Under the pieces are notes generated by a model that saw only the letters and a program-made list of their open reading frames with translations, ran no database searches and was not told the DNA's origin. Below are positions 14,236 through 38,857 of a stretch of 64,000 nucleotides of DNA, one piece after another. The DNA is from Daucus carota subsp. sativus. Taxonomy: Eukaryota; Streptophyta; Magnoliopsida; Apiales; Apiaceae. Every line of letters begins with the position of its first letter. Position 1 is the stretch's first letter. The translations under genes and the position numbers were made by a program. Where the stretch lies: contig NC_030381.2 of assembly GCF_001625215.2 (NCBI RefSeq), positions 1,637,131 through 1,701,130 on the forward strand. Reading direction: 5' to 3'.

Positions 14236-14254
14236 AATAAACTACTAAATTTAT
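14236..14254. repeat. Left 19-bp target-site duplication of the retroposon
   Basis: AATAAACTACTAAATTTAT occurs here and again at 14786-14804, directly after the poly(A) tail of the retroposon. Confidence 0.92.
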
Positions 14255-14785
14255 AAATTTTAATAATATATCCTCTTTCATTCTCTCTCAAAACCCTAGC
14301 CTCCATCACAGATTTTTGAAGGGGCTTCCATCGGTTTCTACCGTTGGAAAGCCCCGATTTCTTCTTTTTTTTCTACTTTCTTGTTTTGAAATCTTATTTT
14401 TCATTCAATAAGTTCCCAATTTATTTGGGTTTTGTTAGTCTCTCCATCTTGTGAGAGTTGGTTTGTTTTGTTTTGGTGTGTTTTGATGTTTTCCATGACC
14501 GAGGTTATAGATCGGCATGATTTTCATGGGTTTGATTCAGGTTTGAAGGTTATTATGGGATCGCATCTATGGTCGATTGTTCAGAACATTCAGGTGAAAA
14601 CCAATCAGATGGAAACAAATGTATATATTCAAATCATCTTCAAATCGCTTAGTTGCCTCTCCAAGAAGGAAGGATTCAACAGCGATATTCTTCAGCGTCT
14701 GTCCAATTTCGATTGTGTTTGTAGATGTCGTATGGCTTTTGATTAATGAATTGATTCCTTTTTATCAAAAAAAAAAAAAAAAAAA
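14255..14785 (+). mobile_element. Non-autonomous polyadenylated retroposon, copy 1
   Basis: This 531-bp element ends in about 20 A residues and is flanked by a perfect 19-bp target duplication (14236-14254 and 14786-14804), the signature of LINE-driven target-primed insertion. Near its 5' end, after AAACCCTAGCC, a hairpin has arms GGGGCTTCCATCGGT and ACCGTTGGAAAGCCCC. A second, reverse-oriented copy is at 38130-38841. The two share the 5' end, the hairpin, a coding-like segment (WSIVQNIQV against WSIAQTIAL, then CRCRMAF) and the 3' end GATGYCGTATGGCYTTT. Copy 1 keeps a 104-aa open frame at 14432-14746 across the shared segment; its product is unrecognised. No reverse transcriptase is encoded. 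I do not recognise the family. Confidence 0.88.
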
Positions 14786-14804
14786 AATAAACTACTAAAT
14801 TTAT
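14786..14804. repeat. Right 19-bp target-site duplication of the retroposon
   Basis: Identical to 14236-14254. Its leading A residues merge with the poly(A) tail. Confidence 0.92.
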
Positions 14805-15219: not shown

Positions 15220-16185
15220 ATGATCATGGCAGAGCAATATGAAGCTAGGCCTGTGAAAGCATTCAGGTTCGACCCTTTTGATGAAGAGTTGATTACTGAT
15301 TATCTCAAGCCTAAGATTATGGGGGGAAAACTCCCATGCAATATGGTCAGAGATAAGGAGGTTTATGGGCCTTTTTGTAGTCCTTGGAGTGTTTTTGATC
15401 CTAATGATGATAAATTCTGGCTTAGATCACCTCATGTTAAGGCAAGTGAGAAGTTCATGTATGTGTTTGCGAAGTTATCGAAGATATCTAGCAGTAGTGG
15501 CTCGAAAAATACGTCGAAAAGGGCTGGCTGTGGAACTTGGGTTGCCAAGACTAAGAGGGATCAGATTAAGGATGGGGAGGGGAATGTGATTGGGGAGAAG
15601 AGGTATTTGGTTTTCGTGATCAATGAGGTTGGTAATGAAGAAATTGGCGATGGATATTATAGTATGCATGAGTATAGCTTGACTGGAGTGAATGAGGGCT
15701 TGAATTTTAAGGATACTATTGTTCTTTGTAGGATTACTTATGATTCTGCTAAGAAAACCACGGTTTCTCCCAAGCCTGGTGGCAGAATTGGTGATCATGT
15801 TTCAAGAAGTGGTAAAGAAGTCCAATTTGAAGAAGAAAAGGACAGCAAGAATGTCGAGGGGACGGGCAGTGTGACTGTAGAGAGTCTGGCTGTGGTGGAT
15901 AGTGGCGTTAAGGACTGGCCTGCAATTGTTCAATTCAACAATGGTGTTCAAGGGTCGGGTGATTTTGGCAGGGGTTTGGGTTTAGGCGACCTAGGTGCTA
16001 TGCCTATGGATTTCTATTGGGACTGTCTAGATGGATTTGACCCGGATTGGATCAAGGCTTGTATTGATTCCAATCACGTCGAGGAGCCATTCCAGGACAA
16101 TGCAACCAATCTTGGGCACAGAAAATTGGAATCGGAGGAGAACTCGTACCAGGCTAAGAAGATGTGTCTTGATAATTGTTATTAG
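15220..16185 (+). CDS. Divergent NAC domain transcription factor, single exon
   Basis: This 321-aa protein has a recognisable but diverged NAC domain in about the first 175 residues. FRFDPFDEELITDYLKPKI corresponds to subdomain A (canonical FRFHPTDEEL), DKEVYG and PWSVF to the next block, GTWVAKTKRDQI to the WKATGKD region, and YYSMHEYSL to the usual W-MHEYRL. The canonical GxKKTLVFY motif is replaced by GEKRYLVFVIN. The rest is a variable, acidic C-terminal region ending in a tail with conserved-looking Trp and Asp, plausibly for activation. NAC factors are plant-specific nuclear DNA-binding proteins. Most have three exons, so the absence of introns is unusual and may reflect a lineage-specific expanded clade or a retrocopy origin. 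An alternative start is the ATG at 15226. DNA binding is uncertain because key residues differ. Confidence 0.82.
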   Translation: MIMAEQYEARPVKAFRFDPFDEELITDYLKPKIMGGKLPCNMVRDKEVYGPFCSPWSVFDPNDDKFWLRSPHVKASEKFMYVFAKLSKISSSSGSKNTSKRAGCGTWVAKTKRDQIKDGEGNVIGEKRYLVFVINEVGNEEIGDGYYSMHEYSLTGVNEGLNFKDTIVLCRITYDSAKKTTVSPKPGGRIGDHVSRSGKEVQFEEEKDSKNVEGTGSVTVESLAVVDSGVKDWPAIVQFNNGVQGSGDFGRGLGLGDLGAMPMDFYWDCLDGFDPDWIKACIDSNHVEEPFQDNATNLGHRKLESEENSYQAKKMCLDNCY

Positions 16186-38113: not shown

Positions 38114-38129
38114 AAATGATTTTCTTTTT
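38114..38129. repeat. Target-site duplication, left side of retroposon copy 2
   Basis: AAATGATTTTCTTTTT occurs here and at 38842-38857. The terminal T residues merge with the T run that represents the element's poly(A) tail. Confidence 0.85.
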
Positions 38130-38841
38130 TTTTTTTTTTGAAACAAAGGTGTTAATCTAATAATAAAAGGCCATACGGCATCTACACCAATGATCGAGTC
38201 GAACAAACAGTAAATTGCAATCGCCTGTTCTCACAAAGAGACAGTTAAACGATATTTTGAATAAAATGTATGTGCAAATACAGGTACCCGCTTCATGCAT
38301 TCTCGTTGAATTACTGGTACCCTCTTCATCATGCCCCGATAGAGCTATCGTTTGAGCTATCGACCAGAACTGCGATTCCATACAAACTTTCATACCAAAT
38401 CAAACCCCGCTTACAATTAAGAAGCGAAAAACAAAGCTCTCACCAGGGAGAGAAAACAACCTTAGATGGAACCAAAGAAACAAGAGAAATCCGACTGAAA
38501 ATCCACCCACTTGAAATAGAGGAGAAAGACAGCGAAATATCCGATGGTTTTAGATCTAAGAATCCCCCGAGATTAGATCTGGAGCAGAACCACAAAACAA
38601 GAAAAATCGAACTGCAACTCACCCGCTTGGAAGAGAGACAACGAAATCTCCGATGGCTCTGAATCTAAGTTTCCCGAGAAGAAGTATTATTCAAAAACTA
38701 AGAATAAAACAAAGTAGTTAACTGATTCGGGGCTTTCCACCGGTGAAAACCGATGGAAGCCCCAGGCGGCTACGACAAGAGAGAGGCTAGAGAGAATTAG
38801 GGTTTTTTTGGGAGAGAGGAGTTGTTATTAATATTTGACTT
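38130..38841 (-). mobile_element. Non-autonomous polyadenylated retroposon, copy 2
   Basis: This is a second member of the family at 14255-14785, inserted in reverse, about 710 bp, with its poly(A) tail at the low-coordinate end and a 16-bp target duplication. On its sense strand the 5' end has AAACCCTAATTCTCTC, then the hairpin with arms GGGGCTTCCATCGGT and ACCGGTGGAAAGCCCC (15 pairs with one A bulge). Compared with copy 1 it has extra sequence after the hairpin, arising largely from a tandem duplication of about 95 bp (38430-38640) around ACCATCGGAxATTTCG and GGGTG(A/G). A 78-aa frame at 38157-38393 ends WCRCRMAFYY, as in copy 1. Confidence 0.85.
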
Positions 38842-38857
38842 AAATGATTTTCTTTTT
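38842..38857. repeat. Target-site duplication, right side of retroposon copy 2
   Basis: Matches 38114-38129 over 16 bases. Confidence 0.85.

What the first reader, a model, noticed from the sequence alone, without database searches (positions are those of the whole stretch)
14236..14804. Unrecognised polyadenylated retroposon family with a perfect 19-bp target-site duplication
Seen: 531 bp ending in a poly(A) run, flanked by identical AATAAACTACTAAATTTAT. A second copy with the same 5' and 3' ends lies at 38130-38841. Because both copies begin at the same 5' point, they are full length rather than 5'-truncated LINE pieces. No reverse transcriptase is present, so mobilisation would be in trans by a LINE (established mechanism of target-primed reverse transcription). 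It does not look like a tRNA-, 7SL- or 5S-derived SINE, and AAACCCTAG near the 5' end resembles a plant mRNA leader. It may be an mRNA-derived (pol II) non-autonomous family.
Basis: partly seen in the sequence, partly recalled or inferred. Interest (0 to 1): 0.72.

Follow-up and report, generated by a model that had tools for sequence, protein, structure and literature searches.

The report
mRNA-like LINE-driven retroposon family in carrot
A short jumping sequence with a poly(A) tail, present in hundreds of copies in what appears to be the carrot genome, looks like a small messenger RNA copied back into DNA by another element's enzyme, and its short reading frame seems to have been kept open even though its protein sequence has not been conserved.

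Summary
In detail: 531 bp ending in poly(A) with a perfect 19-bp target-site duplication (TSD), plus a diverged second copy with its own 16-bp TSD. It belongs to a large dispersed family: 474 places of a 5' hairpin pattern and 908 of a 3' pattern in 441 Mb, 0 in reversed controls. Assembly statistics match carrot DH1 v3. TSDs (54 of 73 copies read), T|AAAA targets, poly(A) and one 5' inversion indicate LINE-type target-primed reverse transcription. No tRNA/5S/7SL head or reverse transcriptase was found: a Sadhu-like, mRNA-like non-autonomous retroposon.

Frame-breaking changes are 18 of 131 private but 1 of 60 shared mutations, while amino acids change at the neutral rate. So the open frame, not the peptide, appears to be kept. 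That it mimics LINE mRNA is inference. The driver LINE, expression and other species were not determined.

The parts
14236..14254 (.). 5' target-site duplication, copy A (19 bp)
   Evidence: exact repeat of 14786-14804
14255..14785 (+). retroposon copy of subfamily A
   Evidence: 39 other scored places 92-99% identical across the genome; TSD-bounded
14255..14267 (+). 5' leader; no shared leader found among the A copies compared
14268..14299 (+). pyrimidine-rich 5' region followed by AAAACCCTAG
14321..14355 (+). conserved 5' hairpin GGGGCTTCCATCGG..CCGTTGGAAAGCCCC
   Evidence: 474 genome places with at most 3 mismatches, 0 in reversed control; present in the predicted fold of 4 of 4 subfamily representatives
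14415..14429 (+). small palindrome CCCAATTTATTTGGG, kept in most of the 19 A, C, D and L089 copies aligned
14440..14457 (+). small hairpin CTCTCC..GTGAGAG; a CTCTCCC..GTGAGAG form is also visible in B copies
14486..14746 (+). small reading frame, 86 codons, first ATG of the element; stop TAA 20 nt before the A-run
14747..14766 (+). 20-nt 3' untranslated part
14767..14787 (+). poly(A) tract (last two bases shared with the TSD)
14786..14804 (.). 3' target-site duplication, copy A
38130..38841 (-). retroposon copy of subfamily B
   Evidence: 29 other loci read, 91-97% identical; TSDs 38114-38129 and 38842-38857
38729..38763 (-). conserved 5' hairpin, copy B
38157..38393 (-). small reading frame of copy B, 78 codons, stop TAG; stop 17 nt before the A-run in 28 of 32 B copies
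38823..38841 (-). 5' leader of copy B, upstream of the conserved ACTCCTCTCTCCC start (38810-38822); weak likeness to the target site of L037

Best explanation
The finding is one copy of a large, dispersed, mRNA-like non-autonomous retroposon family in a plant genome whose size statistics match carrot DH1 v3. SHOWN: several hundred copies; at least four subfamilies (A 531 bp and B about 700 bp in the window); shared 5' hairpin; 5' leader nearly free of ATG; 63-86-codon reading frame ending 14-21 nt before poly(A) in 61 of 73 copies; TSDs mostly starting with A; no reverse transcriptase; no small-RNA head. INFERRED: a capped, polyadenylated (polymerase II) transcript is bound through its poly(A) end by an L1-clade LINE protein in trans and inserted by target-primed reverse transcription. 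INFERRED with moderate support: the source elements are under pressure to keep an open frame from the first ATG to a stop next to poly(A), but not to keep a given peptide, so translation itself, rather than the product, matters for their spread.
For: Family size. TSD in 54 of 73 copies read. Among 51 after dropping two array duplicates and L069, the TSD begins with A in 46 of 51 and is preceded by T in 28 of the 50 with a preceding base, against a flank background of 36% A and 35% T. 5' inversion in L104. No Rfam match, tRNA gene or good A/B box. Frame: ATG is the most depleted of 54 trinucleotides in the leaders of four subfamily representatives, 0 against 9.8 expected, each alone p 0.02-0.16. 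In 61 A and B copies, frame-breaking mutations are 18 of 131 private ORF changes but 0 of 36 shared by three or more copies (p 0.014) and 1 of 60 shared by two or more (p 0.008); replacement:silent counts are alike, 78:32 and 43:16. Stop to poly(A): 20 nt in 23 of 32 A copies, 17 nt in 28 of 32 B copies; 13-23 nt in 8 of 30 LINE loci, those with a long C-terminal part, against 127-202 nt in 11 loci of another type.
Against: No expression data: polymerase II transcription and translation are not shown. Subfamilies and copies are related, so the counts are not independent and p-values are optimistic. The ATG test used representatives with open frames and counts the first in-frame ATG of the open stretch as the start, which excludes some in-frame ATGs by construction; over 58 copies 8 upstream ATGs were found. 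Replacement:silent ratios between representatives fit neutrality in 12 of 12 pairs (p 0.07 to 0.91), which would also fit no coding role at all. Similarity of the 3' end to LINE 3' ends is weak (best p 0.002-0.004 per test among 40 tests, lowest 0.12 for B). No TSD of score 9 was found in 19 of 73 copies. L089 and L091, picked without regard to the frame, have frame breaks.
Confidence: 0.72

Rival explanations
1. A wholly non-coding Sadhu-like retroposon: the reading frame is an accident of ancestry, and only RNA features (hairpins, 3' end, poly(A)) matter.
For: Replacement:silent ratios between representatives are neutral; the hairpin and the 3' motif are among the best conserved stretches. 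Sadhu is reported to have no discernible conserved frame (PMC2848041, passages).
Against: 0 ATG against 9.8 expected in four leaders; frame-breaking changes nearly absent among shared mutations, the one exception being a stop shared by L023 and L025, though frame-shift-sized leader indels are equally common relative to substitutions among private and shared changes (16/149 and 11/95); three different stop codons at the same site in different subfamilies.
Confidence: 0.22
2. A processed-pseudogene family: repeated retrocopying of the mRNAs of a few related host genes encoding a peptide of about 80 residues.
For: mRNA-like layout: pyrimidine-rich leader with AACCCTA in 56 of 73 copies, first-ATG frame, poly(A), TSDs.
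Against: No intron-containing relative seen: the extra pieces in the two interrupted copies read (L103, L105) are Stowaway-like DNA transposons; a further split place on C6 was not read. No Pfam match for three frames, no PDB match for one. A 3' untranslated part of 14-21 nt would be unusual for a cellular plant mRNA (recalled). Peptide sequence not conserved. 908 3' places.
Confidence: 0.1
3. An internally deleted derivative of a LINE (5' and 3' ends of a LINE with the middle lost).
For: The last 30 nt of A weakly resemble the 3' end of an L1 family with long open frames.
Against: The one full-length LINE read (L106+L055, 18-bp TSD) has no 5' match, no hairpin at its 5' end and no frame similarity (best tblastn E 0.88) to the family. 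Only one LINE family's 5' end was read.
Confidence: 0.05

Closest known systems
Sadhu retroposons of Arabidopsis (PMC2848041; parts 1-2 of 5 and passages read)
   Same: Non-autonomous, poly(A)-tailed, TSDs starting with A-runs, no polymerase III boxes, no small-RNA head, pyrimidine-rich stretch near the 5' end, several diverged subfamilies, probably LINE-driven.
   Different: No 5' CAATCGTTSC motif (0 of 73 copies with at most 1 mismatch); 531 and 712 bp in the window instead of about 900; 908 3' places here against 39 Sadhu-related sequences in A. thaliana; a shared reading frame, which Sadhu is said to lack; different plant family.
Plant SINEs (L1-driven; reviewed in PMC3747384, passages read)
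   Same: LINE-driven, poly(A) end, TSDs.
   Different: No tRNA/5S/7SL head and no good A/B boxes; mRNA-like with a reading frame.
L1-clade LINEs of the same genome (loci L041, L043, L045, L046, L055, L056, L058, L059; clade name recalled from the zf-RVT domain)
   Same: Stop codon 13-23 nt before poly(A), poly(A) end; the one full-length copy has an 18-bp TSD.
   Different: Autonomous-type long frames; the one 5' end read is unrelated.
HAL1-type half-LINEs (recalled, not tested)
   Same: Non-autonomous, L1-driven, carry a frame.
   Different: HAL1 keeps LINE ORF1; here the frame shows no similarity to the LINE read (best tblastn E 0.88).
Non-autonomous retrotransposon of barley powdery mildew encoding a peptide (PMC6022598, search listing only)
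   Same: Non-autonomous retroelement with a small frame.
   Different: Fungal; there the peptide itself is reported to act. No such role is indicated here.

Membership tests
Sadhu | poly(A) tract and TSD | tested here: met
   TSD in 54 of 73 copies
Sadhu | 5' motif CAATCGTTSC | tested here: not met
   0 of 73 copies with at most 1 mismatch
Sadhu | pyrimidine-rich region of about 20 bp near the 5' end | tested here: met
   median longest tract (at most 1 purine) 15 nt, range 8-27, 72 copies
Sadhu | about 900 bp, no conserved reading frame | tested here: not met
   531 and 712 bp in the window; frame shared by four subfamilies
Sadhu | not found outside Brassicaceae (2010 paper) | tested here: not met
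   assembly statistics match carrot DH1 v3; species not checked by genes
tRNA/5S/7SL SINE | small-RNA head or polymerase III A and B boxes | tested here: not met
LINE (5'-truncated copy) | reverse transcriptase or LINE sequence over the body | tested here: not met
   in 3.2-kb pieces of 30 LINE loci the only matches with E below 0.05 are the last 48 bp of A in 3 loci, none for B; one full-length LINE matches A with E below 0.005 only at the tail
LINE-driven retroposon (class) | TSD of 7-20 bp starting with A after T, poly(A), occasional 5' inversion | tested here: met
Processed pseudogene | parent gene with introns | tested here: inconclusive
   none recognised among the best 40-150 scored places, many of which were not read base by base
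Polymerase II transcript | capped transcript from the 5' end | not testable with these tools
   no RNA data

The most novel reading that the evidence does not exclude
The retroposon is a translation-dependent mimic of L1 mRNA: the ribosome must load at the first ATG and terminate about 20 nt before poly(A), as on the L1 ORF2 message of the same genome, because LINE protein loads on poly(A) where a ribosome ends. The peptide itself is irrelevant, and selection on sources keeps only the open frame, the ATG-poor leader and the stop position.
Probability: 0.25. Interest if true: 0.8.

Novelty: new variant of a known kind. Interest (0 to 1): 0.5.

Why it matters
How LINE-driven parasites without a small-RNA head get chosen by LINE proteins is an open question; animal Alu is thought to use the ribosome (recalled). 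A plant family of hundreds of copies in which the open frame and the stop-to-poly(A) distance look conserved while the peptide drifts would allow a direct test of whether ending translation near poly(A) is the signal. It would also be a Sadhu-like family outside Brassicaceae with far more copies.

Tried and rejected
Rejected: small-RNA-derived SINE (copy A has no Rfam match at E up to 1, the window none at gathering score, no tRNA gene, no A box, only poor B-box-like matches in copy B). 5'-truncated or internally deleted LINE. Introns in interrupted copies: the inserts in L103 and L105 are Stowaway-like elements.

Peptide under purifying selection: first suggested by protein-aligned dN/dS of 0.22-0.80 (0 for the single C-C pair), then withdrawn because, on DNA alignments with the observed transition bias, replacement:silent counts fit neutrality in 12 of 12 pairs.

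Driver LINE by tail similarity: weak, uncorrected.

5' leaders as pieces of source flanks: one supporting case (the leader of L069 holds the end of the target site of L008), a weak second one (copy B against L037), but 4 of 4 leaders searched genome-wide occur only once, and leaders of 12 nt or more do not match their own locus beyond the 95% level of a shuffled control, apart from the three array copies and two borderline cases. B_L026 begins with a repeat of its own 5' part. Left unexplained. Structure prediction of the peptide was not run, since its sequence is not conserved.

Full report
OBSERVATION. The element at 14255-14785 is flanked by an exact 19-bp repeat at 14236-14254 and 14786-14804 and ends in a run of A. 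The second copy is on the minus strand at 38130-38841 with its own exact 16-bp repeat. The two align at nucleotide level only in a 37-bp hairpin stretch (92%), a 56-bp internal stretch (79%) and the last 66 bp including poly(A) (82%), so they belong to different subfamilies.

HOST. The genome held has 441,086,747 bases in 11 contigs; the nine large ones seen sum to 440.7 Mb, the longest 64.56 Mb. These figures agree with carrot DH1 v3 as given in PMC10581907 (passages read: 440.7 Mb, nine sequences, longest 64.5, N50 51.1; C4 here is 51.15). No gene-level check of the species was made.

FAMILY SIZE. The 35-nt hairpin pattern with at most 3 mismatches has 474 places, and a 30-nt 3' pattern 908, both 0 in the reversed control. 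The ratio suggests that roughly half of the copies keep the 5' end, but the patterns differ in tolerance, so this is rough. DNA searches scored only 40 of 560 (A) and 40 of 1,092 (B) candidates, so the copies read are biased towards long, similar ones.

COPIES READ. I analysed 73 copies: 30 A (from 28 loci) and 30 B from similarity searches, 6 picked by hairpin sequence, and 7 of 8 from a protein search (L099 was left out because no hairpin was found). A TSD of score 9 or more was found in 54 of 73. After dropping two copies of a tandem array and L069, 51 TSDs are 9-30 bp long, mostly 12-20; the first base is A in 46 of 51, the preceding base is T in 28 of 50, against 36% A and 35% T in the flanks. 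L104 has an inverted 5' part. These are marks of L1-type target-primed reverse transcription (established mechanism). L103 and L105 are interrupted by Stowaway-like elements, not introns (the name Stowaway is recalled from the terminal sequence).

NOT A SMALL-RNA SINE OR A LINE PIECE. No Rfam match at E up to 1 in copy A and none in the window at gathering score, no tRNA gene, no A box and only poor B-box-like matches, in copy B. In the 3.2-kb pieces of 30 LINE loci the only matches with E below 0.05 are the last 48 bp of A in three loci. One full-length LINE (18-bp TSD, frames of 370 and 1,358 codons) has no 5' match.

ANATOMY. Pyrimidine-rich start and AACCCTA (56 of 73 copies); hairpin; in A, C and D a small palindrome and a second small hairpin; a leader nearly free of ATG; a small frame; about 14-21 nt; poly(A). 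The hairpins are nearly invariant in the 19 A, C, D and L089 copies aligned, so covariation gives almost no test.

THE FRAME. Subfamilies A, B, C, D share a frame of 63-86 codons ending in CRCRMAF-like residues. In 58 copies chosen for an open frame of at least 78 codons the first ATG is in frame in 50 (A 26 of 29, B 19 of 22, C 2 of 2, D 3 of 5), and upstream ATGs number 3, 3, 0 and 2 against 53, 80, 4 and 11 expected. In one representative of each subfamily the leader has 0 ATG against 9.8 expected, the most depleted of 54 trinucleotides; alone, the four give p 0.16, 0.02, 0.12 and 0.10. They are related, have open frames by choice, and the first in-frame ATG of the open stretch is counted as the start, so no joint p is claimed. 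In one search, 150 of 745 candidates were scored; by my count 123 of the 150 have no stop inside, but that search favours intact frames.

IS THE PEPTIDE CONSERVED? Protein-aligned dN/dS was 0.22-0.80, but protein alignment biases this. On DNA alignments with the observed transition bias, 12 of 12 representative pairs fit neutrality (p 0.07-0.91). In 61 A and B copies (L074 and two array duplicates dropped; L098 among them came from a protein search), private ORF changes are 78 replacement, 32 silent, 7 stops, 11 frameshifts and 3 in-frame indels; changes shared by two or more copies are 43, 16, 1, 0 and 0 (the one stop is shared by L023 and L025). Frame-breaking changes are thus 18 of 131 against 1 of 60 (p 0.008; shared by three or more, 0 of 36, p 0.014), while the replacement:silent ratio does not differ (p 0.86) and leader indels of frame-shift size are equally common relative to substitutions in both classes (p 0.84). 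I read this as: sources keep an open frame, not a peptide. Power is limited and copies are related.

STOP NEXT TO POLY(A). The stop is 20 nt before the A-run in 23 of 32 A copies and 17 nt in 28 of 32 B copies; C gives 16, 17, 30; D gives 14, 15, 16, 16, 21, 31; in all 61 of 73 fall in 14-21 nt, 6 lie outside and 6 gave no value. Of 30 LINE loci, 8 of one type have 13-23 nt (two pairs of near-identical ends among them) and 11 of another type 127-202 nt; the other 11 have earlier stops or no tail read. The 3' layout thus matches one LINE type, while sequence similarity of the ends is weak and absent for B. Sadhu is reported to have no discernible conserved frame (PMC2848041, passages).

5' LEADERS. 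By a rough script-set start, of 54 copies with a TSD 36 carry 10 nt or more between TSD and conserved start, 10 carry 2-8 nt, 6 none, and 2 truncated ones were not measured. Some A copies share leaders. The leader of L069 contains the end of the L008 target site, so L069 most likely descends from L008 with a piece of its flank. But 4 of 4 other leaders occur once in the genome. The four copies truncated furthest (L071, L074, L031, L034) have 0-5 nt. This could be filler added at the end of reverse transcription or flank of sources absent from this line; I cannot decide.

LITERATURE. Searches for Sadhu and retroposon, carrot or Apiaceae retroposons, plant polymerase II non-autonomous retroposons, and small-frame retroposons (listings) showed no title or abstract start describing this family; most subscription papers and Repbase/PlantRep are not held, so an existing catalogue entry is possible.

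VERDICT. A real, high-copy, mRNA-like, LINE-driven retroposon family of the Sadhu kind but not Sadhu by motif, length, reading frame and host. The open-frame feature is the new and testable part.

Noticed in passing
L008 and L069 (C6:37.63 Mb, C5:39.02 Mb): L069 carries the end of the L008 target site in its leader: a likely parent-daughter pair. L069 also has a run of over 50 T between its TSD and leader.
   Followed up: partly
5' ends of A and B copies: Leaders of up to about 42 nt between TSD and conserved start, 4 of 4 tested unique in the genome; source unknown.
   Followed up: partly
L106 and L055 (C2:38.10-38.11 Mb): A full-length LINE with perfect 18-bp TSD and two long open frames, possibly young.
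   Followed up: partly
L060, L061, L066: 3' ends of another LINE type show a GGGGTATGCCCC palindrome shortly before the tail.
   Followed up: no
L076 (C3:9807230-9812745): Three tandem copies of subfamily A with their flanks, about 1.9 kb apart: a local array made by duplication.
   Followed up: no
window 15220-16185: A NAC-domain frame starts about 415 bp downstream of the retroposon, so the insertion may lie in its promoter region.
   Followed up: no
window 38469-38566 and 38587-38675 (-): Copy B has an internal tandem duplication of about 98 aligned bases (73% identical).
   Followed up: no
L088: An exact 30-bp TSD, longer than the others found.
   Followed up: no
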